From Aphelocoma coerulescens (Eukaryota; Chordata; Aves; Passeriformes; Corvidae): a stretch of DNA of 64,000 bases. Under the pieces are notes generated by a model, which searched no databases, was not told the origin of the DNA, and worked only from the letters and a program-made list of their open reading frames with translations. The stretch spans positions 335,634 through 399,633 of the forward strand of contig NW_027183513.1 in NCBI RefSeq assembly GCF_041296385.1, in the 5' to 3' direction. Shown one piece after another: positions 1-64,000 of this stretch. Position 1 is the stretch's first letter; each line of letters begins with the position of its first letter. Position numbers and translations under genes: made by a program.

Positions 1-467
1 CCAGCATCCCCACGGTCTGCAGAGCTCCCCGAGCTTCTGTGGTGTCACAGTGGAGGCAGGGTTGCATCAGGTTCCATAGCATCAGCACGGTCTCCAGGGC
101 TCCCAGAGGTTCTGTGGTGTCACAGTGGAGGCAGGGTTGCATCAGGTTCCATAGCATCACCACAGTCTCCAGGGCTCCCTGAGCTTCTGTGGTGTCACAG
201 TGGAGGCAGGGTTGCATCAGGTTCCATAGCATCAGCACGGTCTCCAGGGCTCCCAGAGGTTCTGTGGTGTCACAGAGGAGGCAGGGTTGCATCAGGTTCC
301 ATAGCATCACCACGGTCTCCAGGGCTCCAAGAGCTTCTGTGGTGTCACAGAGGAGGCAGGGTTGCATCAGGTTCAATAGCATCAGCACGGTCTCCAGGGC
401 TCCCCTGAGCTTCTGTGGTGGTGTCACAGAGGAGCCAGGCTTCCTTGTAGTTCCCCAGCATCACAAA
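1..467. repeat. Satellite unit, partial (right end)
   Basis: The window opens inside a unit just before its 75-bp block. Five canonical subrepeats are present and the partial unit ends at ACAAA (463-467), the sequence used elsewhere as the ERV target site. Confidence 0.95.
39..414. repeat. 75-bp minisatellite block inside the satellite unit (canonical five-copy form)
   Basis: Five tandem copies begin at GTGGTGTCACAG. Copies 1-4 are 75 bp and copy 5 is 76 bp. The copies can be told apart: 1 and 3 end CCCAGAGGTTCT, 2 ends CCCTGAGCTTCT, 4 has CACAGAGGAG and ends CCAAGAGCTTCT, and 5 has CAATAGC in place of CCATAGC. A degenerate sixth copy follows. The same block recurs once per unit (for example 2307-2682). 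Because the period is 25 codons, all frames stay open through it, giving artificial 25-residue repeat proteins. Confidence 0.95.
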
Positions 468-45453: not shown

Positions 45454-47721
45454 GGCTCTCCTGGGAGCCACGGGTCACAAAGCACCGTGGGCTCTGTGCA
45501 GCCCCGCTGTGTCACAATGGCCGCTGGCTTCCACGAGCCCCCGCAGTGTCCCAGTGGGCCCCGTGGCTTTAGGAGTGGGTGGCTGGGAGTTGGTGCCAGC
45601 GGCTGGGGGAGCAGCAGCAGGGACTGTGTGTGGACAGTGCCATGGCCACTTGTGTGGCCACTGGTGTCTCTGTGCCAGGCACAGCCGTGGTGTGTAACAC
45701 CGGCTCTGGGTCCTTTGGCTGTGCAGGTGGCAGTCACGGCCTGGAGCAGGGCTGCTCCCGGGGGACAGCCTGGGGCAGGAGGCTGCTGGAGATTCATTCC
45801 CCACACTCCTTGTCATGAGGTGCTCAGAGTGATTGGAAAGGCTGTTGGCAGCAGGCAGTTCTCTGGGTTCAAGCTGTGGAGCTGTCAGCGGGAATGCAAA
45901 GGCCAAGCTGGTGAGCCTTTTGTCCTGGTGCCTTTAGTGTGTGAGCAGTCCCTGGTGCCGTTGTCTTTGGATCCTGAGTGTGGGAGAGGCAAGGCTTAGG
46001 ATGGTGCGTAGAGCTGAGAAGGAAAGTGCCGAGAGCAGCGTGTGTGCTGCTGCTTTGAGGGGTGCAGTTGAAGTTGTAGGCAGCAAGAGCTTTCTCAGCT
46101 GGCCCTTTTGTGAGCTCTGCTTTTGCCAGATGACTTCCATCTTACCCTCTTACCATCTTAGCCTCTCATTTTTGCATATCCCAAACCCCCTTCCAAACAT
46201 CCAGCAGCTGCTTGTAAAGAAGAAGTCCTAGAACAAAAAGCCAGTGCTGCCTTTCATAGCCCCTTTGCTGTCTATGAAGTAGAGGAAAGAAGCTAGTGAG
46301 ACGCACTTTCTTTCTCAACTCCATAGAGCGCATCCTTCTCTCAAGGTGGCAGAGTCCTTGGCGGAAGTGAAGCATCTGCAGCTGCAGTTCAGACTGAGAG
46401 ATGTGCCAGGACAGGAAACATTTGCTGACCTTCCCTGTTCCCTGTGCAACATGATTCTCGCATCCCAGTCACTTTCACATACCTTCGGTACCCCTGAGTC
46501 CAAGCAGCTAAAGCTCACAGAGACAGAAGTGTCAGGAAGGAAAACGTTCCAAAAGCACCCCCTTCTCTTATCAGCATATAAATTGTGCACAACAGGCTGC
46601 GGCACCGAACCTTCCTTCTCAGATAGACATGCCATCACACTTTTCACTCTTGCAGCTCGGTTGAAAAGCTCCAGCAGCTGCTCCCGCAATAGCAAAAGGT
46701 TCTAGAAGTGAAAGCCAGTTTGGGGCTGCACCTTCTCCTTGCCGCATGTAAGCCACACCAAACTCCCTGATGCACTCTGTCCTCCCCTTCTCAAAGGAGT
46801 AGACGGTGGCATCAGGACACACCTGTGTCCCAGCAGCTGGGTGCCCAGCCGGGAGCAGGAGCAGGGCTGGGGCTGCTCCCAAAGTTGCCCCGCCCCAATG
46901 CCAGAGCCGGACATATGCTGAGGGGGGGCTGGATCAGGCTTTATTGTCCAGCTGCATGCCAGGAGTGAGCACAAAATCTACCTGCATTCTCTGCAGCATG
47001 CCATCCTGGAGCAGAGCCATTGCCAAAGGAAGCCGTGAGCCCGTGCCAAGCCAGTGCCGGAGTGGGATCCTAGCAGCACCTGTGGAAGCCGGGAGAGAGG
47101 AGCCCACCTGGAGCAGGTTCGTGCAGGATTAATCATCCCGTGGCTTCCCACCAGGGTCCTGTTGCTTCCAAAAGGCCCCACAGTGTCACTGTGGCCCCTC
47201 GGTTCCACCAGGTTCCATAGCGTCACTGTGGTGTCCAGGGTTCCGTCAGCTTCGCCAGCATCCCCACGGTCTGCAGAGCTCCCCGAGCTTCTGTGGTGTC
47301 ACAGTGGAGGCAGGGTTGCATCAGGTTCCATAGCATCAGCACGGTCTCCAGGGCTCCCAGAGGTTCTGTGGTGTCACAGTGGAGGCAGGGTTGCATCAGG
47401 TTCCATAGCATCACCACAGTCTCCAGGGCTCCCTGAGCTTCTGTGGTGTCACAGTGGAGGCAGGGTTGCATCAGGTTCCATAGCATCACCACGGTCTCCA
47501 GAGCTCCCAGAGGTTCTGTGGTGTTACAGAGGAGGCAGGGTTGCATCAGGTTCCATAGCATCACCACGGTCTCCAGGGCTCCAAGAGCTTCTGTGGTGTC
47601 ACAGAGGAGGCAGGGTTGCATCAGGTTCAATAGCATCAGCACGGTCTCCAGGGCTCCCCTGAGCTTCTGTGGTGGTGTCACAGAGGAGCCAGGCTTCCTT
47701 GTAGTTCCCCAGCATCACAAA
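45454..47721. repeat. Satellite unit U21 (2,268 bp)
   Basis: Private GGTACCCCTG near 46491 and GGTGTCCAGG near 47234. Its subrepeat block begins the variant-rich segment (47502, 47525) that is repeated one unit later. Confidence 0.95.
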
Positions 47722-49989
47722 GGCTCTCCTGGGAGCCACGGGTCACAAAGCACCATGGGCTCTGTGCAGCCCCGCTGTGTCACAATGGCCGCTGGCTTCC
47801 ACGAGCCCCCGCAGTATCCCAGTGGGCCCCGTGGCTTTAGGAGTGGGTGGCTGGGAGTTGGTGCCAGCGGCTGGGGGAGCAGCAGCAGGGACTGTGTGTG
47901 GACAGTGCCATGGCCACTTGTGTGGCCACTGGTGTCTCTGTGCCAGGCACAGCCGTGGTGTGTAACACCGGCTCTGGGTCCTTTGGCTGTGCAGGTGGCA
48001 GTCACGGCCTGGAGCAGGGCTGCTCCCGGGGGACAGCCTGGGGCAGGAGGCTGCTGGAGATTCATTCCCCACACTCCTTGTCATGAGGTGCTCAGAGTGA
48101 TTGGAAAGGCTGTTGGCAGCAGGCAGTTCTCTGGGTTCAAGCTGTGGAGCTGTCAGCGGGAATGCAAAGGCCAAGCTGGTGAGCCTTTTGTCCTGGTGCC
48201 TTTAGTGTGTGAGCAGTCCCTGGTGCCGTTGTCTTTGGATCCTGAGTGTGGGAGAGGCAAGGCTTAGGATGGTGCGTAGAGCTGAGAAGGAAAGTGCCGA
48301 GAGCAGCGTGTGTGCTGCTGCTTTGAGGGGTGCAGTTGAAGTTGTAGGCAGCAAGAGCTTTCTCAGCTGGCCCTTTTGTGAGCTCTGCTTTTGCCAGATG
48401 ACTTCCATCTTACCCTCTTACCATCTTAGCCTCTCATTTTTGCATATCCCAAACCCCCTTCCAAACATCCAGCAGCTGCTTGTAAAGAAGAAGTCCTAGA
48501 ACAAAAAGCCAGTGCTGCCTTTCATAGCCCCTTTGCTGTCTATGAAGTAGAGGAAAGAAGCTAGTGAGACGCACTTTCTTTCTCAACTCCATAGAGCGCA
48601 TCCTTCTCTCAAGGTGGCAGAGTCCTTGGCGGAAGTGAAGCATCTGCAGCTGCAGTTCAGACTGAGAGATGTGCCAGGACAGGAAACATTTGCTGACCTT
48701 CCCTGTTCCCTGTGCAACATGATTCTCGCATCCCAGTCACTTTCACACACCTTCGGTATCCCTGAGTCCAAGCAGCTAAAGCTCACAGAGACAGAAGTGT
48801 CAGGAAGGAAAACGTTCCAAAAGCACCCCCTTCTCTTATCAGCATATAAATTGTGCACAACAGGCTGCGGCACCGAACCTTCCTTCTCAGATAGACATGC
48901 CATCACACTTTTCACTCTTGCAGCTCGGTTGAAAAGCTCCAGCAGCTGCTCCCGCAATAGCAAAAGGTTCTAGAAGTGAAAGCCAGTTTGGGGCTGCACC
49001 TTCTCCTTGCCGCATGTAAGCCACACCAAACTCCCTGATGCACTCTGTCCTCCCCTTCTCAAAGGAGTAGACGGTGGCATCAGGACACACCTGTGTCCCA
49101 GCAGCTGGGTGCCCAGCCGGGAGCAGGAGCAGGGCTGGGGCTGCTCCCAAAGTTGCCCCGCCCCAATGCCAGAGCCGGACATATGCTGAGGGGGGGCTGG
49201 ATCAGGCTTTATTGTCCAGCTGCATGCCAGGAGTGAGCACAAAATCTACCTGCATTCTCTGCAGCATGCCATCCTGGAGCAGAGCCATTGCCAAAGGAAG
49301 CCGTGAGCCCGTGCCAAGCCAGTGCCGGAGTGGGATCCTAGCAGCACCTGTGGAAGCCGGGAGAGAGGAGCCCACCTGGAGCAGGTTCGTGCAGGATTAA
49401 TCATCCCGTGGCTTCCCACCAGGGTCCTGTTGCTTCCAAAAGGCCCCACAGTGTCACTGTGGCCCCTCGGTTCCACCAGGTTCCATAGCGTCACTGTGGT
49501 GCCCAGGGTTCCGTCAGCTTCGCCAGCATCCCCACGGTCTGCAGAGCTCCCCGAGCTTCTGTGGTGTCACAGTGGAGGCAGGGTTGCATCAGGTTCCATA
49601 GCATCAGCACGGTCTCCAGGGCTCCCAGAGGTTCTGTGGTGTCACAGTGGAGGCAGGGTTGCATCAGGTTCCATAGCATCACCACAGTCTCCAGGGCTCC
49701 CTGAGCTTCTGTGGTGTCACAGTGGAGGCAGGGTTGCATCAGGTTCCATAGCATCACCACGGTCTCCAGAGCTCCCAGAGGTTCTGTGGTGTTACAGAGG
49801 AGGCAGGGTTGCATCAGGTTCCATAGCATCACCACGGTCTCCAGGGCTCCAAGAGCTTCTGTGGTGTCACAGAGGAGGCAGGGTTGCATCAGGTTCAATA
49901 GCATCAGCACGGTCTCCAGGGCTCCCCTGAGCTTCTGTGGTGGTGTCACAGAGGAGCCAGGCTTCCTTGTAGTTCCCCAGCATCACAAA
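47722..49989. repeat. Satellite unit U22 (2,268 bp)
   Basis: Carries CACCATGGGC at 47755, GCAGTATCCC at 47816 and TTTCACACACC at 48748. All three recur exactly 2,268 bp later. Confidence 0.95.
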
Positions 49990-52182
49990 GGCTCTCCTGG
50001 GAGCCACGGGTCACAAAGCACCATGGGCTCTGTGCAGCCCCGCTGTGTCACAATGGCCGCTGGCTTCCACGAGCCCCCGCAGTATCCCAGTGGGCCCCGT
50101 GGCTTTAGGAGTGGGTGGCTGGGAGTTGGTGCCAGCGGCTGGGGGAGCAGCAGCAGGGACTGTGTGTGGACAGTGCCATGGCCACTTGTGTGGCCACTGG
50201 TGTCTCTGTGCCAGGCACAGCCGTGGTGTGTAACACCGGCTCTGGGTCCTTTGGCTGTGCAGGTGGCAGTCACGGCCTGGAGCAGGGCTGCTCCCGGGGG
50301 ACAGCCTGGGGCAGGAGGCTGCTGGAGATTCATTCCCCACACTCCTTGTCATGAGGTGCTCAGAGTGATTGGAAAGGCTGTTGGCAGCAGGCAGTTCTCT
50401 GGGTTCAAGCTGTGGAGCTGTCAGCGGGAATGCAAAGGCCAAGCTGGTGAGCCTTTTGTCCTGGTGCCTTTAGTGTGTGAGCAGTCCCTGGTGCCGTTGT
50501 CTTTGGATCCTGAGTGTGGGAGAGGCAAGGCTTAGGATGGTGCGTAGAGCTGAGAAGGAAAGTGCCGAGAGCAGCGTGTGTGCTGCTGCTTTGAGGGGTG
50601 CAGTTGAAGTTGTAGGCAGCAAGAGCTTTCTCAGCTGGCCCTTTTGTGAGCTCTGCTTTTGCCAGATGACTTCCATCTTACCCTCTTACCATCTTAGCCT
50701 CTCATTTTTGCATATCCCAAACCCCCTTCCAAACATCCAGCAGCTGCTTGTAAAGAAGAAGTCCTAGAACAAAAAGCCAGTGCTGCCTTTCATAGCCCCT
50801 TTGCTGTCTATGAAGTAGAGGAAAGAAGCTAGTGAGACGCACTTTCTTTCTCAACTCCATAGAGCGCATCCTTCTCTCAAGGTGGCAGAGTCCTTGGCGG
50901 AAGTGAAGCATCTGCAGCTGCAGTTCAGACTGAGAGATGTGCCAGGACAGGAAACATTTGCTGACCTTCCCTGTTCCCTGTGCAACATGATTCTCGCATC
51001 CCAGTCACTTTCACACACCTTCGGTATCCCTGAGTCCAAGCAGCTAAAGCTCACAGAGACAGAAGTGTCAGGAAGGAAAACGTTCCAAAAGCACCCCCTT
51101 CTCTTATCAGCATATAAATTGTGCACAACAGGCTGCGGCACCGAACCTTCCTTCTCAGATAGACATGCCATCACACTTTTCACTCTTGCAGCTCGGTTGA
51201 AAAGCTCCAGCAGCTGCTCCCGCAATAGCAAAAGGTTCTAGAAGTGAAAGCCAGTTTGGGGCTGCACCTTCTCCTTGCCGCATGTAAGCCACACCAAACT
51301 CCCTGATGCACTCTGTCCTCCCCTTCTCAAAGGAGTAGACGGTGGCATCAGGACACACCTGTGTCCCAGCAGCTGGGTGCCCAGCCGGGAGCAGGAGCAG
51401 GGCTGGGGCTGCTCCCAAAGTTGCCCCGCCCCAATGCCAGAGCCGGACATATGCTGAGGGGGGGCTGGATCAGGCTTTATTGTCCAGCTGCATGCCAGGA
51501 GTGAGCACAAAATCTACCTGCATTCTCTGCAGCATGCCATCCTGGAGCAGAGCCATTGCCAAAGGAAGCCGTGAGCCCGTGCCAAGCCAGTGCCGGAGTG
51601 GGATCCTAGCAGCACCTGTGGAAGCCGGGAGAGAGGAGCCCACCTGGAGCAGGTTCGTGCAGGATTAATCATCCCGTGGCTTCCCACCAGGGTCCTGTTG
51701 CTTCCAAAAGGCCCCACAGTGTCACTGTGGCCCCTCGGTTCCACCAGGTTCCATAGCGTCACTGTGGTGCCCAGGGTTCCGTCAGCTTCGCCAGCATCCC
51801 CACGGTCTGCAGAGCTCCCCGAGCTTCTGTGGTGTCACAGTGGAGGCAGGGTTGCATCAGGTTCCATAGCATCAGCACGGTCTCCAGGGCTCCCAGAGGT
51901 TCTGTGGTGTCACAGTGGAGGCAGGGTTGCATCAGGTTCCATAGCATCAGCACGGTCTCCAGGGCTCCCAGAGGTTCTGTGGTGTCACAGAGGAGGCAGG
52001 GTTGCATCAGGTTCCATAGCATCACCACGGTCTCCAGGGCTCCAAGAGCTTCTGTGGTGTCACAGAGGAGGCAGGGTTGCATCAGGTTCAATAGCATCAG
52101 CACGGTCTCCAGGGCTCCCCTGAGCTTCTGTGGTGGTGTCACAGAGGAGCCAGGCTTCCTTGTAGTCCCCCAGCATCACAAA
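49990..52182. repeat. Satellite unit U23 (2,193 bp), four subrepeats, ends at provirus 1
   Basis: Shares the U22 variants (50023, 50084, 51016), lacks one subrepeat (order 1-3-4-5) and has a private T to C at 52167. It ends with ACAAA (52178-52182), the left target-site duplication of provirus 1. Confidence 0.95.
52178..52182. repeat. Target-site duplication of provirus 1, left copy (ACAAA)
   Basis: ACAAA precedes the LTR terminus TGTCGAAA. Uninterrupted satellite units read CATCACAAAGGCTC here, with a single ACAAA. Confidence 0.93.
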
Positions 52183-52290
52183 TGTCGAAATTGATGGCGA
52201 TGATGGTGATGAGGGTGTGGGTTCGGTCGGGCCCGGCTGGAGATGGACGGCGACGAGAGATCTCTATAAGCAGGTCTTTGGAGCATGCAG

Positions 52291-52296
52291 TTTATT
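52291..52296 (-). promoter_or_regulatory. Poly(A) signal AATAAA in the 3' LTR
   Basis: AATAAA on the minus strand within CTGCAATAAACTGC, about 110 bp before the LTR end, a usual position relative to U5. The same hexamer occurs in the 5' LTR at 57563-57568. Confidence 0.7.
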
Positions 52297-52362
52297 GCAG
52301 AGGGCGTGGGTACAGGGGCACTGCTTAGAGCTGCCAGCTGCAGCTCCAAGCAGGCCCAAGGT

Positions 52363-52600
52363 GTAAGAGAGGGAGAGAGAGTGAGCGAGAGAGCTAGAGC
52401 AAGAGGCTGAGAGCTAAGAGTGTAAAGAGCAAGAGAGACAAACTAAGAGGAGAGCTGAATTAAGAGGAAGAAGAAGAGCAAGAGAGTTACTAAGAGAGCT
52501 ACTAAGAGGAGAAGAGCATTACTAAGAGAGCTACTAAGAGAGTTACTAAGAGCGTTACTAAGAGGAGAAGAGCATTACTAAGAGGAGAGGAGTTAAGAGA
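52363..52600. repeat. Purine-rich tract with short tandem repeats inside the LTR
   Basis: A (GA)-rich stretch leads into imperfect 10-15-bp repeats of the form TTACTAAGAG and CTACTAAGAG with GAGAAGAGCA insertions (about 52482-52590). In sense RNA this is a pyrimidine-rich strand. It is copied in every LTR of the window. Confidence 0.8.
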
Positions 52601-52902
52601 GCGAGGAGCTTGTTACAATACAATAAATCATCTTCTGTAGTGAATATTCTAATTCTCAGTAGCCAATCTAATACAAGGTACAAATCCTATAGCATTTACA
52701 TACAGCCTATAAGAGTTCTTACATTACCATAGAGTGTTACATTTTAACTTCTAAAAACTACTCTTTGGACCCCTTCTGCTGAGCTAGTAGGGTCTGCTCT
52801 GACCCTTGGACCTGTCTGCAAGCAGAGGGTATTGTTCAATCAAGAGGGGATTACCTTCAGCCGGCTATACCATTGTTTTCCAGTTGTTCAGTAACTAAGA
52901 CT

Positions 52903-54261
52903 CTATATCTCAAAGATGGCCTTCATTTCGATGTCGCTCACAGTTTTCATATTCCCAGAATCTTTTGTTAGGCAATCATATTTATAAGGCTTTCCTGTTT
53001 CATCTTCCCCAACATCTCCCCCGTTCTGATGAACAACTAAGATATTAGATACAGTCCTACTCGTTATTTTTTGCACACACTGGAGCATACAAGGTACTGC
53101 TACTAAAACTATAATTATTACTACTAGAATAATCAAGCCTATTTTACAGAGTTCCCTTAGCCAAGGTGCAAAGCTCCAATCATCAAACAAACTGTCCAGC
53201 CAAGACGGGTCATCTGTTCTAATTTGGTTAGCTAGATCCTTTAGGTTTTGTAGCTGTTTGTGAATGGAAACAGAATGATCGGATAAGTTCATACAGCATA
53301 ATCCTTCAAAATCTTCACAGCCGTGCCCATGTGCTAATAAAAGATAATCAACGGCAGCTCTATTTTGTAAAGTGGCATGTCTGACTGCCTCTTCATCGGT
53401 TAACAGATCACTGATCATAGTAGAGGTGGCATTTACCTCCTTGCTGAGCCAACATCCCAACTTGTTTAACTGTTTTAAAGCAATTGAGGAGCTTAACTGA
53501 GGTAGAAAAATGCTTGCAACAATTGATTTTCCAGAGTTCCAAGGGTGGAAGTCACTATCACAGTCACTATCGTACTGATGTCCCCAGGAAGATCTGATCT
53601 TTCTGCTTTTCTTTTTGATTACCTCTTTGACACTGGGAGCAATAATTGTAAGTTGTCCCAGAGCACAAGGGCCACCATCTATTTTTGAAGGTATACCTTG
53701 CCAGGCCCTGTCTCCACAGATGAGCCAAATTCCTCTGGGGAATCGAATAGGAAGTTTGCTAAAACGATCTGCATGAGGTTCGTCATATATAAGAAGCTTA
53801 ACTTGACTACACCAAGAAGTTACATTGCTATAAGCTGGGTGATATGGGGTAACATTTAAATGGGGACCGTTTTCTCCTTGAAAGTGAAAGAAATAGCAGG
53901 TATCCATAGTTAACGAACCTAGGATTTCTAGCTCTTGAAGGTCAGATTTATCAATTTTAGAATTATCAATATAAGTTTGGTGTCTATGGCTGGGAGTTGG
54001 AGATACATGATGATCGTCATATGGCCAATACTTATCAAGAGTAATATTATCAAAACCTTCTGGAAGAGGTACTCCAACTAAACAGGTTGAAAAAGGTTTG
54101 TCAGGGCTTGTGTCAGATAGACAGATGGTATCGGAGCCTGCGGATTTGGCTAAAGCAACCCAGACATTTGTCTTTGGTTGATTCACAGGTAAAGCTTCAC
54201 TACAAAAACTAAAACAAAAGAATAAAAGCAACATGCACGCGCGCAAATGAGAAAACTCCAT
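52903..54261 (-). CDS. env: Retroviral envelope glycoprotein (Env), intact frame, provirus 1
   Basis: A single open frame of 452 codons from the ATG at 54261. The frame extends 10 codons further upstream but only to a GTG, so the ATG is preferred. It would make the virion surface and membrane-fusion glycoprotein. Visible features are: a hydrophobic signal peptide at about residues 9-22; N-glycosylation sequons near 72, 136, 146, 277 and 325; a basic stretch at about 217-223 with an RKIR step that could be the surface/transmembrane cleavage site; a hydrophobic segment after it; the conserved heptad and immunosuppressive-type region at about 298-314; CX6CC at 315-323; and a membrane anchor at about 375-395. 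The organisation resembles avian alpharetroviral Env, but the surface subunit seems short (about 200 residues). The last 37 residues are encoded within the 3' LTR. Expression would need splicing from the donor at 56856. Fusion competence is unknown. Confidence 0.92.
   Translation of the reverse strand: MEFSHLRACMLLLFFCFSFCSEALPVNQPKTNVWVALAKSAGSDTICLSDTSPDKPFSTCLVGVPLPEGFDNITLDKYWPYDDHHVSPTPSHRHQTYIDNSKIDKSDLQELEILGSLTMDTCYFFHFQGENGPHLNVTPYHPAYSNVTSWCSQVKLLIYDEPHADRFSKLPIRFPRGIWLICGDRAWQGIPSKIDGGPCALGQLTIIAPSVKEVIKKKSRKIRSSWGHQYDSDCDSDFHPWNSGKSIVASIFLPQLSSSIALKQLNKLGCWLSKEVNATSTMISDLLTDEEAVRHATLQNRAAVDYLLLAHGHGCEDFEGLCCMNLSDHSVSIHKQLQNLKDLANQIRTDDPSWLDSLFDDWSFAPWLRELCKIGLIILVVIIIVLVAVPCMLQCVQKITSRTVSNILVVHQNGGDVGEDETGKPYKYDCLTKDSGNMKTVSDIEMKAIFEI
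53015..53025 (-). promoter_or_regulatory. Polypurine tract of provirus 1
   Basis: Sense AACGGGGGAGA directly abuts the LTR start TGTTGGGG. By family knowledge this is the RNase H-resistant primer for plus-strand synthesis. It lies inside the env frame, where it encodes Asn-Gly-Gly plus part of Asp. Confidence 0.9.
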
Positions 54262-54315
54262 TCTTTTCTTGAGCTGTTTTTGGCAGATCACTTTCTTCTG
54301 GTGATTCTGCGCAGT

Positions 54316-55467
54316 TCAGGTCTGGGTGCTTGCTTCCTGGCTTCCACTTGCAGAGTCACTGGCTGGTGTGGTGGCATCAGCAGGCTTTGATGCGAGGTAT
54401 GGCTTCACGTTTTTTGCTGGAACCCACTTGATTCCTTCACCTGTGGAAACACATGCAAACCCCTTCCCCCACATTATAAGATTGTATGGTCCTTCTATTT
54501 TTCCTGAGTCTAGATTTTTAATCAAAACTGGGGGGCGCTCTTTCAGTTTTGCTTTTTTGTTGTTCAAAAAATGTCTATAAATGGGGGGATCAGGCTCTTC
54601 TGCAGAGCTATTCAAAAAATTGTAAACATACAAAGCCTTGTTCAACCTCCTTTGAGGTGTATCCTGGACTTCTCCCCCTCTCTGTTGATCTAAAATGCGT
54701 TTTAGGGTTTGATGTGTTCTTTTTAGGGTACTTTTTAGCAGTTGTTTAAGATACGGTGAGCAAATACCACTATCTCTTACAGCCCTTCTTAGTTCTTTAA
54801 TTTCGTGAGTGGGGATGGGAACCCACGTTTTGGGACTGTCAGGCTGTTGGCTAGCTATCACAGGCTTAGCTAATAGACTTTCATCTTTACAGCTTTGGAG
54901 TCTTATTTCATGCCAATCTGTTAATTGAGAATAATCTGAGCACTTTGGAGGATTTTTTGATTCAGAAAGTAGCGCTAACAAACTCTCAGAACTCGTTTTC
55001 TCCTTATGGGTTGCAAGATCCCAGCCGCTCGCTGGCGGGACTCTGGGGCTCATTGCAAACAAATCTGGCTGCTTTTCAGGGTTTCCTGGTGTTAGATTTA
55101 AAGCATCAGCTCGGGCAGAGCGGCTCTCCGTCTTCCCTGCCACTGGAGCTGCACCACTGCCCTCCGTTCCCCCCCTGTTTGCGGCTTGTGAGGCGAGGCT
55201 GAGCTGCGCGGAGGGATGTTGCTGGGCGGCGGTAGCCGAGGGATACAGCTGTGCGGTGCCGGAGGGCCCCGGCGGGGGCGGCGATGGCACTGCCGATCTC
55301 CGCGGTGGCGGGCGAGGAGGCGGGGGGGCCGCGAGCAACCGGCTCCGCGGCAGCGGGCGAGGGGGTGCGGGTGGCTCTATTGAAGGCGAGGTGAAAGCCG
55401 TGGGGGGCGGTGGCGGAGCTAGTTCCGTGAGCAGTGCTGTGGTTGGAGAAGTGTGAGCGTGCGTGGG
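54316..55467 (-). pseudogene. Gag capsid N-terminus fused in frame to integrase C-terminus (deletion remnant)
   Basis: An open stretch from just after an in-frame TAA (55468) to TGA at 54316. It has no ATG near its 5' end. The first ATG lies about 94 codons downstream of a TTG at 55338. It begins with Pro-rich sequence, then a polar Gag spacer, then about 45 residues resembling a capsid N-terminus (WVPIPTHEIKELRRAV, 54822-54775). At about 54719-54738 it changes to the end of the integrase core (RTHQTLK) and the integrase DNA-binding domain, with GPYNLIMWGKGFACV and KWVPAKNVKPYL. The D,D(35)E catalytic residues are absent, so no integrase activity is expected. The env ATG lies 54 bp beyond its stop. 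Identity of the capsid and integrase parts is by motif recognition. Confidence 0.85.
54719..54738 (-). other. Deletion junction between capsid and integrase sequence
   Basis: Two copies of CTTTTTAG (+ strand) at 54719-54726 and 54731-54738 lie where capsid-like coding changes to integrase-like coding. Short direct repeats at such a joint fit a reverse-transcriptase template jump. The joint keeps the reading frame. Confidence 0.65.
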
Positions 55468-56834
55468 TTACGCCATCAGGTCAACGTGGCGGACTGTGAT
55501 GGCCGCTGTCTGTGTGTCGGGGAGAGCGGGAGGTGGCAGGGCTGTCCCGTCGGCAGGAGACGATCCCGGGGCTGCGGGAGGCGGGAGGGCCGGCGTGGAG
55601 GCGGCGGGAGTATGTTGCGGTGGGGCCATGGCGAACGGTGGGCCAGTCGGCGGCTGGACCGCGGCGTGCTGCCGCTGGGAGTTTGCAGGCTGGGCTGGTG
55701 TGGCTGCCGGCGCGGCGGTGCCAGGAGACGGGGCTGGAGCAGCGGCAGGCACGGGAGAGGCAGCAGCCATCTGTGTAGGCGCTGCAGCGCCGGCACCAGG
55801 TGGCTGGCGGGGCTGGGGCGCTCCGTGTCCCACGGACGCGGACGGGACGTTGACCACCACCGGCGCCGTGTCGGTGGCGGCGAGGGGGACCTGGGGGGCT
55901 GGAAGAAGGGTCGCCGCCTGGCTTTGCGGGGGGCCGGCTATGATGGTGGCTACAGCCATAACAGGCGCGGCTAGGGGAGCGGTAGGACCCGTAGGTGGCT
56001 GGGGAGCAGCCGCTGGCCCCGCGGGGCTATCGGCGGGGGGCGGGGCCGCGAAGGCGCTGGCGGACGGGGTGGGAGGAGCGAGGGACGGGGCCGCGAAGAC
56101 GCTGGAGCCGAGGGCGGGGACCGCGGGAGCCGGGGCAGCAGGGAGGAACGGGATGGGGGGGGCGGGGATGGGGGGAGCGGTGGAGGGGGTCGTAGGGTCC
56201 GGTGGGACAGGGGTGACGGCTGCCAGGACAGCGGGGGCGGGGGGCGGGGCGGCACGAGTCAGTCGGACCGCGGCTACCGGAGCCGCGAGAGGCGGGACAG
56301 CAGGGACTAACGGGACCGTGGGGGTGGAGATGACGGGGGCGGTGGGGGGGGGGCGGTGGAGTCCGGTGGGGCAGGGGTGACCGGTGCAGGGACCGCGGGG
56401 GGGTGGGGCGGGGCGGCACGAGACAGCTGGACCGCGGGTACTGGAGCCGTGAGGTCCGGCGGCGGGGCGGGGGCCGTGCCCGGTTGCAGGCTCGCGGCGG
56501 CAAGGGGCGGGCTCGCAGCAGGAGCGGGACCCGGCGAGGTGGCTGCTGCGGGCGGCGCCTTCACAGCAAACAGCTCCACGAGCGCTCTGCAAGCCGGGAC
56601 CAGCTCCGCGGCAGCCCAATCCCGGCGGGAGATATTATTAAAGAGTTTAACCCGAACTGTGTCCCAGAAGTCTCTTGTAAAGACGGCTGAACGGTCAGCA
56701 TTTGGGAAATTAATCAGAGTCCATTCTAAGAGGTTTTTTAGCTCCTGTTTAGGTAATTGACTTGGACCGGAGCTTAGTAAGTACTTAAGTTGTTTATAGA
56801 GATGTCTGTCATGGGCAGAGTGAGTTTGTCCCAT
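55468..56834 (-). pseudogene. gag: gag 5' part: matrix and long Pro/Ala-rich region, frameshifted and stopped
   Basis: Starts at ATG 56834 with MGQ, so an N-terminal myristoylation signal is plausible. About the first 95 residues form a betaretrovirus-like matrix domain that would direct Gag to the membrane. A very long Pro/Ala-rich region follows. The starting frame closes at 56307. The Pro/Ala-rich coding continues in the next frame from a run of ten G (+ strand) at 56344-56353, so one base appears to be missing in that homopolymer. The second frame runs to an in-frame TAA at 55468-55470, which is also present in provirus 2 (63845-63847). Repeated DNA about 164 bp apart (56251 and 56415) supports a 1-bp loss from a 165-bp coding repeat. 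The frameshift may be a sequencing error; the TAA is less likely to be one. Confidence 0.85.
56344..56353 (-). other. Ten-base homopolymer at the gag frameshift
   Basis: Ten consecutive G on the + strand, placed where the matrix frame ends within 50 bp and the Pro/Ala frame takes over. Provirus 2 leaves the window before reaching this point, so it cannot arbitrate. Confidence 0.75.
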
Positions 56835-56850
56835 TATTGACCAGTATGAT

Positions 56851-56860
56851 ACTCACCTAG
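56851..56860 (-). promoter_or_regulatory. Predicted major splice donor
   Basis: The sense sequence CTAG|GTGAGT places the GT at 56856-56855, a near-perfect donor 22 bases before the gag ATG. Simple retroviruses use such a donor to make spliced env mRNA. I could not single out the matching acceptor upstream of env. Confidence 0.7.
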
Positions 56861-56958
56861 ATGTCGCAGGGGGCAGGGTCCTTAATCAGAAGTCCGTCGT
56901 GGGGGGCTGGCCAGGCTCTCCACACGGCGCTCAGGACGCTGCTGTCGGGTCCCTCCTC

Positions 56959-57368
56959 AGAGCTCCGGTTTCAGGCGTCGCTTGGCAACGGCTTTCCGTG
57001 CTCGGGACCTCGCAGGTGTCTCCACTCAGAGCTCCAGCGCGGGCGGTGCTGAGCAATACCCGCCTGTGCTCGGGCGCGCGGCTGGATCCCTCCTAAGAGC
57101 TCCGGTCTGCACTGCTTAGCAGCGTGTCCGTGCTCGAGGGGTACCACGGCAAACTTCCTCAAAGAGCTCCAGGTAACCGCTGCGCAGCAGTGGCCGTCTG
57201 TGCTCGAGGACTGCCAGGCAATTTCCTCCCTCCGAGAGCTCCAGGTAATTGCTACGAAGTAACGGCTCCCCGTGCTCGAGGGCTGCCTCAGCAGAGTTAT
57301 AGAGCTCCGGCTTTTACGCTGCGCAGCAACGGTATGCCGTGCTCACGACACGTTCCAGGTGGCTATAA
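56959..57368 (-). repeat. Leader repeats: six diverged copies of about 68 bp
   Basis: AGAGCTCC recurs at 56959, 57028, 57096, 57163, 57235 and 57301, spaced 69, 68, 67, 72 and 66 bp. Each copy also holds a relative of GCTGCGCAGCAACGG followed by CCGTGCTCGAGG. GAGCTC, CTCGAG and GCTGCGCAGC are self-complementary. The copies occupy the untranslated leader between the primer site and gag, where retroviral packaging and dimerisation signals normally sit. They do not match the 75-bp satellite subrepeat. Confidence 0.85.
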
Positions 57369-57433
57369 CTGGTCTTTTAGTTACCGTCCATGGCGAAGTC
57401 TCTCACAGGTGGAAGAAGCTGAATCAGGCCTTC

Positions 57434-57451
57434 ACTCACGTTTGGGCGCCA
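57434..57451 (-). promoter_or_regulatory. Primer-binding site, tRNA-Lys type
   Basis: Sense TGGCGCCCAAACGTGAGT lies three bases after the 5' LTR end. TGGCGCCC is complementary to the 3' end of tRNA-Lys, and the remainder resembles the Lys-1,2 class with small differences. This is the primer class of betaretroviruses and ERVK elements. Confidence 0.88.
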
Positions 57452-57454
57452 GTT

Positions 57455-58286
57455 TGTCGAAATTGATGGCGATGATGGTGATGAGGGTGTGGGTTCGGTC
57501 GGGCCCGGCTGGAGATGGACGGCGACGAGAGATCTCTATAAGCAGGTCTTTGGAGCATGCAGTTTATTGCAGAGGGCGTGGGTACAGGGGCACTGCTTAG
57601 AGCTGCCAGCTGCAGCTCCAAGCAGGCCCAAGGTGTAAGAGAGGGAGAGAGAGTGAGCGAGAGAGCTAGAGCAAGAGGCTGAGAGCTAAGAGTGTAAAGA
57701 GCAAGAGAGACAAACTAAGAGGAGAGCTGAATTAAGAGGAAGAAGAAGAGCAAGAGAGTTACTAAGAGAGCTACTAAGAGGAGAAGAGCATTACTAAGAG
57801 AGCTACTAAGAGAGTTACTAAGAGCGTTACTAAGAGGAGAAGAGCATTACTAAGAGGAGAGGAGTTAAGAGAGCGAGGAGCTTGTTACAATACAATAAAT
57901 CATCTTCTGTAGTGAATATTCTAATTCTCAGTAGCCAATCTAATACAAGGTACAAATCCTATAGCATTTACATACAGCCTATAAGAGTTCTTACATTACC
58001 ATAGAGTGTTACATTTTAACTTCTAAAAACTACTCTTTGGACCCCTTCTGCTGAGCTAGTAGGGTCTGCTCTGACCCTTGGACCTGTCTGCAAGCAGAGG
58101 GTATTGTTCAATCAAGAGGGGATTACCTTCAGCCGGCTATACCATTGTTTTCCAGTTGTTCAGTAACTAAGACTCTATATCTCAAAGATGGCCTTCATTT
58201 CGATGTCGCTCACAGTTTTCATATTCCCAGAATCTTTTGTTAGGCAATCATATTTATAAGGCTTTCCTGTTTCATCTTCCCCAACA
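57455..58286 (-). repeat. 5' LTR of provirus 1 (832 bp)
   Basis: Same length as the 3' LTR and identical to it as far as I can compare by eye. It therefore also carries the env tail codons near its 58286 end, without the rest of env. It would contain the promoter for the minus-strand provirus. Satellite sequence resumes five bases beyond it. Confidence 0.95.
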
Positions 58287-58291
58287 ACAAA
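58287..58291. repeat. Target-site duplication of provirus 1, right copy (ACAAA)
   Basis: ACAAA follows the LTR end CCCCAACA and precedes GGCTCTCC, where satellite sequence resumes in register. Confidence 0.93.
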
Positions 58292-60559
58292 GGCTCTCCT
58301 GGGAGCCACGGGTCACAAAGCACCGTGGGCTCTGTGCAGCCCCGCTGTGTCACAATGGCCGCTGGCTTCCACGAGCCCCCGCAGTGTCCCAGTGGGCCCC
58401 GTGGCTTTAGGAGTGGGTGGCTGGGAGTTGGTGCCAGCGGCTGGGGGAGCAGCAGCAGGGACTGTGTGTGGACAGTGCCATGGCCACTTGTGTGGCCACT
58501 GGTGTCTCTGTGCCAGGCACAGCCGTGGTGTGTAACACCGGCTCTGGGTCCTTTGGCTGTGCAGGTGGCAGTCACGGCCTGGAGCAGGGCTGCTCCCGGG
58601 GGACAGCCTGGGGCAGGAGGCTGCTGGAGATTCATTCCCCACACTCCTTGTCATGAGGTGCTCAGAGTGATTGGAAAGGCTGTTGGCAGCAGGCAGTTCT
58701 CTGGGTTCAAGCTGTGGAGCTGTCAGCGGGAATGCAAAGGCCAAGCTGGTGAGCCTTTTGTCCTGGTGCCTTTAGTGTGTGAGCAGTCCCTGGTGCCGTT
58801 GTCTTTGGATCCTGAGTGTGGGAGAGGCAAGGCTTAGGATGGTGCGTAGAGCTGAGAAGGAAAGTGCCGAGAGCAGCGTGTGTGCTGCTGCTTTGAGGGG
58901 TGCAGTTGAAGTTGTAGGCAGCAAGAGCTTTCTCAGCTGGCCCTTTTGTGAGCTCTGCTTTTGCCAGATGACTTCCATCTTACCCTCTTACCATCTTAGC
59001 CTCTCATTTTTGCATATCCCAAACCCCCTTCCAAACATCCAGCAGCTGCTTGTAAAGAAGAAGTCCTAGAACAAAAAGCCAGTGCTGCCTTTCATAGCCC
59101 CTTTGCTGTCTATGAAGTAGAGGAAAGAAGCTAGTGAGACGCACTTTCTTTCTCAACTCCATAGAGCGCATCCTTCTCTCAAGGTGGCAGAGTCCTTGGC
59201 GGAAGTGAAGCATCTGCAGCTGCAGTTCAGACTGAGAGATGTGCCAGGACAGGAAACATTTGCTGACCTTCCCTGTTCCCTGTGCAACATGATTCTCGCA
59301 TCCCAGTCACTTTCACATACCTTCGGTATCCCTGAGTCCAAGCAGCTAAAGCTCACAGAGACAGAAGTGTCAGGAAGGAAAACGTTCCAAAAGCACCCCC
59401 TTCTCTTATCAGCATATAAATTGTGCACAACAGGCTGCGGCACCGAACCTTCCTTCTCAGATAGACATGCCATCACACTTTTCACTCTTGCAGCTCGGTT
59501 GAAAAGCTCCAGCAGCTGCTCCCGCAATAGCAAAAGGTTCTAGAAGTGAAAGCCAGTTTGGGGCTGCACCTTCTCCTTGCCGCATGTAAGCCACACCAAA
59601 CTCCCTGATGCACTCTGTCCTCCCCTTCTCAAAGGAGTAGACGGTGGCATCAGGACACACCTGTGTCCCAGCAGCTGGGTGCCCAGCCGGGAGCAGGAGC
59701 AGGGCTGGGGCTGCTCCCAAAGTTGCCCCGCCCCAATGCCAGAGCCGGACATATGCTGAGGGGGGGCTGGATCAGGCTTTATTGTCCAGCTGCATGCCAG
59801 GAGTGAGCACAAAATCTACCTGCATTCTCTGCAGCATGCCATCCTGGAGCAGAGCCATTGCCAAAGGAAGCCGTGAGCCCGTGCCAAGCCAGTGCCGGAG
59901 TGGGATCCTAGCAGCACCTGTGGAAGCCGGGAGAGAGGAGCCCACCTGGAGCAGGTTCGTGCAGGATTAATCATCCCGTGGCTTCCCACCAGGGTCCTGT
60001 TGCTTCCAAAAGGCCCCACAGTGTCACTGTGGCCCCTCGGTTCCACCAGGTTCCATAGCGTCACTGTGGTGCCCAGGGTTCCGTCAGCTTCGCCAGCATC
60101 CCCACGGTCTGCAGAGCTCCCCGAGCTTCTGTGGTGTCACAGTGGAGGCAGGGTTGCATCAGGTTCCATAGCATCAGCACGGTCTCCAGGGCTCCCAGAG
60201 GTTCTGTGGTGTCACAGTGGAGGCAGGGTTGCATCAGGTTCCATAGCATCACCACAGTCTCCAGGGCTCCCTGAGCTTCTGTGGTGTCACAGTGGAGGCA
60301 GGGTTGCATCAGGTTCCATAGCATCAGCACGGTCTCCAGGGCTCCCAGAGGTTCTGTGGTGTCACAGAGGAGGCAGGGTTGCATCAGGTTCCATAGCATC
60401 ACCACGGTCTCCAGGGCTCCAAGAGCTTCTGTGGTGTCACAGAGGAGGCAGGGTTGCATCAGGTTCAATAGCATCAGCACGGTCTCCAGGGCTCCCCTGA
60501 GCTTCTGTGGTGGTGTCACAGAGGAGCCAGGCTTCCTTGTAGTTCCCCAGCATCACAAA
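58292..60559. repeat. Satellite unit U24 (2,268 bp) between the two proviruses
   Basis: Exactly modal length, five subrepeats, no private variant noticed. It begins at GGCTCTCC after the right target duplication of provirus 1 and ends with ACAAA (60555-60559), the left duplication of provirus 2. Confidence 0.95.
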
Positions 60560-61391
60560 TGTCGAAATTGATGGCGATGATGGTGATGAGGGTGTGGGTT
60601 CGGTCGGGCCCGGCTGGAGATGGACGGCGACGAGAGATCTCTATAAGCAGGTCTTTGGAGCATGCAGTTTATTGCAGAGGGCGTGGGTACAGGGGCACTG
60701 CTTAGAGCTGCCAGCTGCAGCTCCAAGCAGGCCCAAGGTGTAAGAGAGGGAGAGAGAGTGAGCGAGAGAGCTAGAGCAAGAGGCTGAGAGCTAAGAGTGT
60801 AAAGAGCAAGAGAGACAAACTAAGAGGAGAGCTGAATTAAGAGGAAGAAGAAGAGCAAGAGAGTTACTAAGAGAGCTACTAAGAGGAGAAGAGCATTACT
60901 AAGAGAGCTACTAAGAGAGTTACTAAGAGCGTTACTAAGAGGAGAAGAGCATTACTAAGAGGAGAGGAGTTAAGAGAGCGAGGAGCTTGTTACAATACAA
61001 TAAATCATCTTCTGTAGTGAATATTCTAATTCTCAGTAGCCAATCTAATACAAGGTACAAATCCTATAGCATTTACATACAGCCTATAAGAGTTCTTACA
61101 TTACCATAGAGTGTTACATTTTAACTTCTAAAAACTACTCTTTGGACCCCTTCTGCTGAGCTAGTAGGGTCTGCTCTGACCCTTGGACCTGTCTGCAAGC
61201 AGAGGGTATTGTTCAATCAAGAGGGGATTACCTTCAGCCGGCTATACCATTGTTTTCCAGTTGTTCAGTAACTAAGACTCTATATCTCAAAGATGGCCTT
61301 CATTTCGATGTCGCTCACAGTTTTCATATTCCCAGAATCTTTTGTTAGGCAATCATATTTATAAGGCTTTCCTGTTTCATCTTCCCCAACA
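60560..61391 (-). repeat. 3' LTR of provirus 2 (832 bp)
   Basis: Same termini (TGTCGAAATT, CCCCAACA) and length as the LTRs of provirus 1. The poly(A) signal falls at 60668-60673 and the polypurine tract abuts at 61392. Confidence 0.95.
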
Positions 61392-62638
61392 TCTCCCCCG
61401 TTCTGATGAACAACTAAGATATTAGATACAGTCCTACTCGTTATTTTTTGCACACACTGAAGCATACAAGGTACTGCTACTAAAACTATAATTATTACTA
61501 CTAGAATAATCAAGCCTATTTTACAGAGTTCCCTTAGCCAAGGTGCAAAGCTCCAATCATCAAACAAACTGTCCAGCCAAGACGGGTCATCTGTTCTAAT
61601 TTGGTTAGCTAGATCCTTTAGGTTTTGTAGCTGTTTGTGAATGGAAACAGAATGATCGGATAAGTTCATACAGCATAATCCTTCAAAATCTTCACAGCCG
61701 TGCCCATGTGCTAATAAAAGATAATCAACGGCAGCTCTATTTTGTAAAGTGGCATGTCTGACTGCCTCTTCATCGGTTAACAGATCACTGATCATAGTAG
61801 AGGTGGCATTTACCTCCTTGCTGAGCCAACATCCCAACTTGTTTAACTGTTTTAAAGCAATTGAGGAGCTTAACTGAGGTAGAAAAATGCTTGCAACAAT
61901 TGATTTTCCAGAGTTCCAAGGGTGGAAGTCACTATCACAGTCACTATCGTACTGATGTCCCCAGGAAGATCTGATCTTTCTGCTTTTCTTTTTGATTACC
62001 TCTTTGACACTGGGAGCAATAATTGTAAGTTGTCCCAGAGCACAAGGGCCACCATCTATTTTTGAAGGTATACCTTGCCAGGCCCTGTCTCCACAGATGA
62101 GCCAAATTCCTCTGGGGAATCGAATAGGAAGTTTGCTAAAACGATCTGCATGAGGTTCGTCATATATAAGAAGCTTAACTTGACTACACCAAGAAGTTAC
62201 ATTGCTATAAGCTGGGTGATATGGGGTAACATTTAAATGGGGACCGTTTTCTCCTTGAAAGTGAAAGAAATAGCAGGTATCCATAGTTAACGAACCTAGG
62301 ATTTCTAGCTCTTGAAGGTCAGATTTATCAATTTTAGAATTATCAATATAAGTTTGGTGTCTATGGCTGGGAGTTGGAGATACATGATGATCGTCATATG
62401 GCCAATACTTATCAAGAGTAATATTATCAAAACCTTCTGGAAGAGGTACTCCAACTAAACAGGTTGAAAAAGGTTTGTCAGGGCTTGTGTCAGATAGACA
62501 GATGGTATCGGAGCCTGCGGATTTGGCTAAAGCAACCCAGACATTTGTCTTTGGTTGATTCACAGGTAAAGCTTCACTACAAAAACTAAAACAAAAGAAT
62601 AAAAGCAACATGCACGCGCGCAAATGAGAAAACTCCAT
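61280..62638 (-). CDS. env: Retroviral envelope glycoprotein (Env), intact frame, provirus 2
   Basis: 452 codons from the ATG at 62638, with the same predicted protein as the env of provirus 1. The one nucleotide difference noticed (61460 A versus 53083 G) changes one leucine codon to another. Signal peptide, sequons, basic cleavage-like stretch, CX6CC motif, membrane anchor and LTR-encoded tail are all as in the first copy. Two intact copies this close are explained by satellite duplication, so their being open reflects recency and is not by itself evidence of selection. Confidence 0.92.
   Translation of the reverse strand: MEFSHLRACMLLLFFCFSFCSEALPVNQPKTNVWVALAKSAGSDTICLSDTSPDKPFSTCLVGVPLPEGFDNITLDKYWPYDDHHVSPTPSHRHQTYIDNSKIDKSDLQELEILGSLTMDTCYFFHFQGENGPHLNVTPYHPAYSNVTSWCSQVKLLIYDEPHADRFSKLPIRFPRGIWLICGDRAWQGIPSKIDGGPCALGQLTIIAPSVKEVIKKKSRKIRSSWGHQYDSDCDSDFHPWNSGKSIVASIFLPQLSSSIALKQLNKLGCWLSKEVNATSTMISDLLTDEEAVRHATLQNRAAVDYLLLAHGHGCEDFEGLCCMNLSDHSVSIHKQLQNLKDLANQIRTDDPSWLDSLFDDWSFAPWLRELCKIGLIILVVIIIVLVAVPCMLQCVQKITSRTVSNILVVHQNGGDVGEDETGKPYKYDCLTKDSGNMKTVSDIEMKAIFEI
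61392..61402 (-). promoter_or_regulatory. Polypurine tract of provirus 2
   Basis: Sense AACGGGGGAGA directly before the LTR, identical to provirus 1. Confidence 0.88.
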
Positions 62639-62692
62639 TCTTTTCTTGAGCTGTTTTTGGCAGATCACTTTCTTCTGGTGATTCTGCGCAGT

Positions 62693-63844
62693 TCAGGTCT
62701 GGGTGCTTGCTTCCTGGCTTCCACTTGCAGAGTCACTGGCTGGTGTGGTGGCATCAGCAGGCTTTGATGCGAGGTATGGCTTCACGTTTTTTGCTGGAAC
62801 CCACTTGATTCCTTCACCTGTGGAAACACATGCAAACCCCTTCCCCCACATTATAAGATTGTATGGTCCTTCTATTTTTCCTGAGTCTAGATTTTTAATC
62901 AAAACTGGGGGGCGCTCTTTCAGTTTTGCTTTTTTGTTGTTCAAAAAATGTCTATAAATGGGGGGATCAGGCTCTTCTGCAGAGCTATTCAAAAAATTGT
63001 AAACATACAAAGCCTTGTTCAACCTCCTTTGAGGTGTATCCTGGACTTCTCCCCCTCTCTGTTGATCTAAAATGCGTTTTAGGGTTTGATGTGTTCTTTT
63101 TAGGGTACTTTTTAGCAGTTGTTTAAGATACGGTGAGCAAATACCACTATCTCTTACAGCCCTTCTTAGTTCTTTAATTTCGTGAGTGGGGATGGGAACC
63201 CACGTTTTGGGACTGTCAGGCTGTTGGCTAGCTATCACAGGCTTAGCTAATAGACTTTCATCTTTACAGCTTTGGAGTCTTATTTCATGCCAATCTGTTA
63301 ATTGAGAATAATCTGAGCACTTTGGAGGATTTTTTGATTCAGAAAGTAGCGCTAACAAACTCTCAGAACTCGTTTTCTCCTTATGGGTTGCAAGATCCCA
63401 GCCGCTCGCTGGCGGGACTCTGGGGCTCATTGCAAACAAATCTGGCTGCTTTTCAGGGTTTCCTGGTGTTAGATTTAAAGCATCAGCTCGGGCAGAGCGG
63501 CTCTCCGTCTTCCCTGCCACTGGAGCTGCACCACTGCCCTCCGTTCCCCCCCTGTTTGCGGCTTGTGAGGCGAGGCTGAGCTGCGCGGAGGGATGTTGCT
63601 GGGCGGCGGTAGCCGAGGGATACAGCTGTGCGGTGCCGGAGGGCCCCGGCGGGGGCGGCGATGGCACTGCCGATCTCCGCGGTGGCGGGCGAGGAGGCGG
63701 GGGGGCCGCGAGCAACCGGCTCCGCGGCAGCGGGCGAGGGGGTGCGGGTGGCTCTATTGAAGGCGAGGTGAAAGCCGTGGGGGGCGGTGGCGGAGCTAGT
63801 TCCGTGAGCAGTGCTGTGGTTGGAGAAGTGTGAGCGTGCGTGGG
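62693..63844 (-). pseudogene. Capsid-integrase fusion remnant, provirus 2
   Basis: Copy of 54316-55467 with the same joint (about 63096-63115), the same TGA end and the same absence of catalytic residues. Confidence 0.85.
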
Positions 63845-64000
63845 TTACGCCATCAGGTCAACGTGGCGGACTGTGATGGCCGCTGTCTGTGTGTCGGGGA
63901 GAGCGGGAGGTGGCAGGGCTGTCCCGTCGGCAGGAGACGATCCCGGGGCTGCGGGAGGCGGGAGGGCCGGCGTGGAGGCGGCGGGAGTATGTTGCGGTGG
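63845..64000 (-). pseudogene. gag: gag Pro/Ala-rich region, provirus 2, truncated by window edge
   Basis: Begins at the shared in-frame TAA (63845-63847) and continues as Pro/Ala-rich coding to the window end. The matrix part, the homopolymer, the leader and the 5' LTR would lie beyond 64000. Confidence 0.8.

What the first reader, a model, noticed from the sequence alone, without database searches (positions are those of the whole stretch)
52183..64000. An endogenous retrovirus has become part of a satellite repeat unit and is amplified with it
Two provirus copies sit at exactly the same base of the satellite unit, in the same orientation and with the same internal defects. Their spacing of 8,377 bp equals 6,104 + 5 + 2,268. 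Two independent insertions at one site with one deletion are implausible, so one insertion was followed by duplication of a unit containing it. Satellite dynamics can thus multiply a retroviral env and LTR promoters without retrotransposition.
Basis: partly seen in the sequence, partly recalled or inferred. Interest (0 to 1): 0.88.

Follow-up and report, generated by a model that had tools for sequence, protein, structure and literature searches.

The report
Duplicated retrovirus inside bird satellite array
A defective bird retrovirus that landed once in a long tandem repeat appears to have been copied into the next repeat unit by the repeat's own recombination, a real but small example of a process already known from humans and fruit flies.

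Summary
The window is an array of a 2,268-bp satellite. A 6,104-bp provirus (52183-58286, two identical 832-bp LTRs, TSD ACAAA) sits at one base of the unit. A second copy starts 8,377 bp later (60560) at the same base and orientation, and differs at 1 of 3,441 visible positions. The other 23 of 25 sites are empty.

One insertion followed by local copying is the best reading, but two supports fail. The 'same internal defect' (gag capsid fused to the end of integrase) is family-wide: 6 of 10 protein relatives, from crow, barn swallow and an unnamed sample, carry the same junction, so it says nothing about these two copies. And the left flanks differ: the unit before copy 1 has five variants that the unit before copy 2 lacks, one 16 bp from the provirus. 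Either that flank changed after an unequal exchange, or the provirus was transferred by gene conversion.

'Part of the satellite unit and amplified' is too strong: one duplication is seen, and copy 2 is cut by the window end. An assembly or haplotype mis-join is not excluded; three units of the array are indel-rich. Human K111/K222 and Drosophila invader4 are precedents.

The parts
1..52182 (.). Satellite array, 2,268-bp unit, with an inner block of about 4-6 copies of a 75-bp repeat in each unit; 23 empty insertion sites
49988..52182 (.). Satellite unit left of copy 1: G36A, G97A, T1029C, 75-bp deletion at 1913-1987, T2255C against the unit consensus
52178..52182 (.). Target-site duplication ACAAA, left of copy 1
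52183..58286 (-). Provirus copy 1, 6,104 bp, TG...CA ends, coding on the - strand
52183..53014 (-). 3' LTR of copy 1, 832 bp, identical to the 5' LTR
52903..54291 (-). env-like ORF (462 aa in the mechanical listing): Avian_gp85 E=4.8e-13, TLV_coat E=1.1e-11; best solved relatives 5h9c (Envelope glycoprotein gp95) and 4jpr (ASLV fusion TM); open in both copies
54316..55338 (-). Fusion ORF (340 aa): proline-rich part, first 36 positions of Gag_p24, then the C-terminal part of integrase
55100..57454 (-). Leader / gag 5' part, 55-81% G+C per 250 bp, with tandem repeats; no Pfam match in the 3 minus-strand ORFs and 1 plus-strand ORF tested
57455..58286 (-). 5' LTR of copy 1, 832 bp; a lysine-tRNA-like primer site starts 3 bases after it (tRNA name recalled)
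58287..58291 (.). Target-site duplication ACAAA, right of copy 1
58292..60559 (.). Single satellite unit between the two proviruses (2,268 bp), 0 substitutions against the unit consensus, ending in ACAAA
60560..64000 (-). Provirus copy 2, cut by the window end: 3,441 of 6,104 bp visible, 1 difference from copy 1

Best explanation
A pol-deleted, non-autonomous ERV of a bird (probably a songbird, judged from its nearest relatives; the host was not identified) integrated once in one unit of a 2,268-bp satellite, presumably with enzymes supplied in trans, and made a 5-bp target duplication (shown: TSD, purine tract, primer site, identical LTRs; the trans supply is inferred). Recombination between near-identical satellite units then copied the provirus with some of its surroundings into the next position of the array (inferred). 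The likeliest route is misaligned sister-chromatid exchange with the breakpoint in the unit between the copies, followed by small changes in the unit left of copy 1 (loss of one 75-bp subrepeat, one substitution) and one change in a provirus copy. Gene conversion of the provirus into the neighbouring empty unit is a close variant that needs no later flank changes. The visible result is one duplication, not an established composite satellite.
For: Same base, same orientation, spacing 6,104+5+2,268 exactly. A second independent insertion in that unit would hit the same base and orientation about once in 4,536 by simple counting (2 x 2,268; inference). The copies differ by 1/3,441 (0.029%) against a mean of 0.148% between 21 of 24 units over unit positions 1-1850. 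Array turnover next door: U45452 carries variants at 2038, 2051 and 2074, U49988 carries variants at 36, 97 and 1029, and U47720 between them carries both sets, the mark of a one-unit tandem duplication. 10 of 14 informative shared variants have adjacent carriers against 1.84 expected by shuffling unit order, P = 5e-5; linked variants were counted separately, so this P is too small.
Against: The unit left of copy 1 has five variants that the unit left of copy 2 lacks, T2255C only 16 bp from the provirus, so the copied piece did not carry this flank as it is now. The 75-bp deletion is the same 75 bp as in U36604, so it may be old and not a later change. Copy 2's right side is unseen. No reads or host genome could be examined (genome search did not complete).
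Confidence: 0.78

Rival explanations
1. Assembly or haplotype artefact: one provirus per chromosome, and two alleles or two passes through the array were joined in tandem during assembly.
For: Near-identical units make mis-joins easy (inference). Three units (7271-14075) carry 23, 18 and 9 short indels against 0-1 in the other 21 of 24 units, so this contig has a stretch that looks poorly corrected. Copies 1 and 2 differ little (1/3,441 plus a changed left flank), as alleles could.
Against: No indel separates the two copies over the 3,441 shared bases or the LTRs; the left flanks differ by five variants, so it is not the same sequence used twice.
Confidence: 0.17
2. Two independent insertions of the same non-autonomous ERV family at the same base of neighbouring units.
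For: The internal deletion is family-wide (6 of 10 relatives), so two insertions would share it anyway; left flanks differ.
Against: Same base, same orientation, 23 other sites empty; integrase site preference is weak (general knowledge); 1/3,441 difference.
Confidence: 0.03
3. The 8,377-bp piece is a unit of a larger composite satellite that continues beyond 64000, with many provirus-bearing units (overlaps the best explanation).
For: Copy 2 runs off the window end; 6 of 24 units have no substitution against the consensus, so the array homogenises.
Against: Only 2 of 25 sites filled in 64 kb, both at one end; nothing beyond 64000 could be read.
Confidence: 0.2

Closest known systems
[quoted passage not shown] abstract and passages seen)
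   Same: A provirus in a satellite-type repeat, multiplied according to its authors by recombination or gene conversion of the repeat; recombinants with exchanged flanks reported
   Different: Human; several chromosomes; K111 target GAATTC (6 bp) against 5 bp here; here two copies in tandem with identical LTRs, so probably far younger
invader4 array in Drosophila subtelomeric TAS mini-satellites (PMC1794594; passages seen)
   Same: LTR element (type recalled) embedded in a satellite and tandemly duplicated
   Different: Insect; an established array; here one duplication
Three tandem full-length Kronos_I ERVs at the chicken chr32 centromere core, and HINT1W in a 5,648-bp satellite x52 (PMC9974502; passages seen)
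   Same: Bird; tandem ERV copies; another sequence multiplied as a satellite
   Different: Kronos copies lie at a centromere core; no satellite unit around them is described in the passages seen
Kangaroo endogenous retrovirus KERV (review PMC10815390; passages seen)
   Same: ERV amplified at centromeric loci
   Different: Tied to demethylation in a hybrid; no unit duplication described in the passages seen

Membership tests
Endogenous retrovirus (LTR provirus) | Two LTRs with TG...CA ends flanked by a target-site duplication | tested here: met
   832/832 identical LTRs, TSD ACAAA
Endogenous retrovirus (LTR provirus) | Primer-binding site after the 5' LTR and polypurine tract before the 3' LTR | tested here: met
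   TGGCGCCCAAACGTGAG starting 3 bases after the 5' LTR, GGGGGAGA right before the 3' LTR; lysine assignment recalled
Endogenous retrovirus (LTR provirus) | gag, pol and env genes | tested here: inconclusive
   env-like ORF present; of gag and pol only a Gag_p24 start fused to the integrase end was recognised in the six ORFs scanned
Non-autonomous ERV family with gag-integrase fusion | Same internal deletion at dispersed loci | tested here: met
   At protein level: 6 of 10 relatives carry the same junction (two crow contigs, three barn swallow contigs, one unnamed sample); 3 of 10 have a normal integrase core; 1 of 10 lacks the region
Provirus copied by satellite recombination (K111-like) | Several copies share the same integration site in the repeat | tested here: met
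   Two copies at the same unit base, same TSD on the three visible sides
Provirus copied by satellite recombination (K111-like) | Flanking repeat sequence copied along with the provirus | tested here: inconclusive
   Left flanks differ in five variants; right flank of copy 2 unseen
Composite satellite with provirus in its unit | Regular tandem array of the 8,377-bp unit | tested here: not met
   Not met within the window: one interval, 2 of 25 sites filled; beyond 64000 unknown
Two copies on one molecule | Single reads spanning both copies | not testable with these tools
   No reads held; host genome search unanswered

The most novel reading that the evidence does not exclude
The window catches the birth of a composite satellite: a defective ERV with an open env-like ORF and 832-bp LTRs has begun to spread through a fast-homogenising bird array by gene conversion from unit to unit, each transfer leaving the recipient's own flank variants in place, so that an element without its own pol gains a second way of multiplying.
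Probability: 0.15. Interest if true: 0.62.

Novelty: new member of a known kind. Interest (0 to 1): 0.36.

Why it matters
It is a base-resolved, apparently young example of a provirus copied by satellite recombination: empty sites, target duplication and flanking variants are all in view, so exchange and conversion can be told apart once the right flank of copy 2 is read. It also warns that ERV copy counts in satellite arrays may measure satellite turnover, and that a shared internal deletion is no proof of duplication when the deletion is a family trait.

Tried and rejected
Rejected as evidence: the shared internal deletion (family-wide). Considered and rejected: tandem proviruses by LTR-LTR exchange, which would leave copies sharing an LTR with no satellite between them; here a full 2,268-bp unit plus TSD lies between. 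Considered: the satellite unit as a gene. Nine ORFs of one unit gave no family at its cut-off (one DUF1258 match at 16.8 bits, cut-off 33.1), and the 274-aa frame had 2 relatives, both of unnamed sources. Led nowhere: a scan of viral contigs with the fusion ORF (37 stretches matched a pattern, 0 confirmed) and the host genome (genome search not answered). Paper searches aimed at an ERV in a bird or other satellite saw listings only, often 20 or fewer of those found; no listed title or abstract start pointed to this unit, but the listed papers were mostly not read and only open-licence papers are held. Rough ages (95% bound 0.4-0.9 My for the LTR pair, point 0.03-0.08 My for the copy pair) use recalled bird mutation rates and assume no gene conversion, so they carry no weight here.

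Full report
WHAT IS THERE. The window is a tandem array. Self-matches peak at 2,268 bp. Anchoring units near the insertion point gives 24 complete units; 15 of 24 are 2,268 or 2,269 bp, and the unit between the proviruses, listed as 2,270 because the anchor fell 2 bases early, is 2,268 when counted from the base after the TSD. Each unit has an inner block of 75-bp repeats, 3.8 to 6.0 copies. 6 of 24 units have no substitution against the consensus: U5003, U14076, U20880 and U27685 are identical to it, U29953 lacks 4 bp, and the unit between the proviruses has only the 2 boundary bases. Mean pairwise substitution divergence between 21 units over positions 1-1850 is 0.148%; the three units left out (7271-14075) are rich in short indels.

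THE PROVIRUS. At 52183 the array is interrupted by a 6,104-bp provirus, coding on the minus strand: 832-bp LTRs at 52183-53014 and 57455-58286 without a difference, a 5-bp target duplication ACAAA, a lysine-tRNA-like primer site 3 bases after the 5' LTR and a purine tract right before the 3' LTR (the tRNA name is recalled). The env-like ORF (52903-54291) matches Avian_gp85 and TLV_coat and, by sequence, the solved ASLV fusion TM among 14 matches. It has one CX6CC motif and a C-terminal hydrophobic stretch; the patterns R-X-[KR]-R and CXXC were not found. Its nearest relative among 201 proteins is a 460-aa Hirundo rustica protein, 85% identical over the whole query. The second ORF (54316-55338) begins proline-rich, has the first 36 positions of the Gag_p24 profile and then runs into the C-terminal part of integrase. 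Protease, reverse transcriptase, RNase H, the rest of capsid and most of integrase were not recognised in the six ORFs scanned.

THE SECOND COPY. A second provirus starts at 60560, exactly 8,377 bp later, at the same base of the unit and in the same orientation, with one 2,268-bp unit and the 5-bp duplication in between. It is cut at 64000 after 3,441 bp and differs from copy 1 there at one base, which changes no residue of the env-like ORF. Its other LTR, right target duplication and right flank are not in the window. Of 25 insertion sites in the window 23 are empty (22 exact, 1 with a variant base). No LTR 16-mer lies outside the three LTRs (both strands), and no interior 20-mer lies on the plus strand of the array left of copy 1.

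THE SHARED DEFECT IS NO EVIDENCE. A protein search with the fusion ORF found 10 relatives. In 6 of 10 (P0001 of an unnamed sample; P0002 and P0003 of Corvus cornix cornix, on two contigs; P0004, P0005 and P0009 of Hirundo rustica rustica, on three contigs) the capsid stretch runs into the integrase end at the same place; 3 of 10 (P0006-P0008) have a normal integrase core; 1 of 10 (P0010) lacks the region (one search shows a full alignment of 6 of the 10). So the deletion is dispersed and family-wide, as expected of a non-autonomous ERV moved in trans (inference). Two independent insertions would share it too. This rests on predicted proteins; no DNA of the other loci was seen.

WHAT STILL SUPPORTS ONE INSERTION. 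The same base and the same strand. By simple counting a second insertion in that unit would hit the same base and orientation about once in 4,536; integrases have only weak site preference (general knowledge), and 23 other copies of the site are empty. The array also shows the required process next door: U45452 carries variants at 2038, 2051 and 2074 (2038 also occurs in U32217); U49988 carries variants at 36, 97 and 1029; U47720 between them carries both sets. That is what a one-unit tandem duplication with a breakpoint between 1029 and 2038 leaves. U45452 also has two substitutions (1040, 1783) that U47720 lacks, so either these are later or the breakpoint lies beyond 1783. Over the whole array 10 of 14 informative shared variants have adjacent carriers against 1.84 expected when unit order is shuffled (P = 5e-5). 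The 17 block variants shared by U32217 and U41066 (not adjacent) were left out of that count, the three noisy units were kept, and linked variants were counted one by one, so the P is too small.

WHAT DOES NOT FIT A PLAIN DUPLICATION. The unit left of copy 1 differs from the consensus by G36A, G97A, T1029C, a 75-bp deletion (1913-1987) and T2255C; the unit left of copy 2 has none of these. T2255C (window 52167) lies 16 bp from the provirus. If the 75-bp loss and T2255C came after the duplication, an unequal exchange with its breakpoint in the middle unit explains the rest. If they are older (the same 75 bp are missing in U36604, and 344 compared bases there are equal but for T2255C), the provirus must have reached the middle unit's end with almost none of its old left flank, which is what gene conversion of an insertion into an empty homologous site would do. 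The right flank of copy 2 would decide, and it is outside the window.

ARTEFACT. Three consecutive units (7271-14075) have 23, 18 and 9 short indels against 0-1 in the other 21 of 24 units, which looks like poorly corrected long reads (inference). No such indel separates the two proviruses or the LTRs. A tandem mis-join of two alleles would also give two nearly identical proviruses with different left flanks, and cannot be excluded without reads. The host-genome search was requested five times and never answered.

KNOWN KINDS. K111 and K222 in human centromeric and pericentromeric repeats are proviruses that their authors hold to be multiplied by recombination or gene conversion (PMC4425911, abstract and passages). 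In Drosophila, invader4 forms a tandemly duplicated array within subtelomeric mini-satellites (PMC1794594, passages). In chicken, three tandem Kronos_I ERVs form one centromere core and HINT1W is multiplied in a 5,648-bp satellite (PMC9974502, passages). KERV is amplified at kangaroo centromeric loci (PMC10815390, passages). The present case is a bird member of that kind, seen at the stage of two copies.

VERDICT. Observation confirmed for the part in view; interpretation partly supported. One insertion plus local copying is likely (0.78), artefact possible (0.17), independent insertion unlikely (0.03). The reading of a composite array that continues beyond the window (0.2) overlaps the first.

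Noticed in passing
window 7271-14075: Three consecutive satellite units with 23, 18 and 9 short indels against 0-1 in the other 21 units, probably a poorly corrected stretch of the assembly.
   Followed up: partly
window 45452-52182: Unit U47720 combines variants of its two neighbours, the mark of a one-unit tandem duplication with a breakpoint between unit positions 1029 and 2038.
   Followed up: yes
window 32217-34335 and 41066-43183: Two units four steps apart share a rearranged 75-bp block (17 shared substitutions at positions 2058-2114 and a 154-bp loss); the units after them share G114A, suggesting a longer segmental copy.
   Followed up: partly
window 54316-55338: Relatives of the gag-integrase fusion ORF carry host-gene names: 'protein VASP homolog' in Corvus cornix cornix, and 'sulfated surface glycoprotein 185-like' for a partial relative in Corvus kubaryi.
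   Followed up: partly
window 55100-57454: Unusually G+C-rich (up to 81% per 250 bp) leader/gag part of the provirus with a 164-bp tandem repeat and no Pfam match in the four ORFs tested.
   Followed up: no
window 52903-55338: The integrase end is nearest by sequence to 7usf (MMTV integrase, name recalled) and then RSV integrase, while the env-like ORF is ASLV-like, so the element may join a betaretrovirus-like pol with an alpharetrovirus-like env.
   Followed up: no
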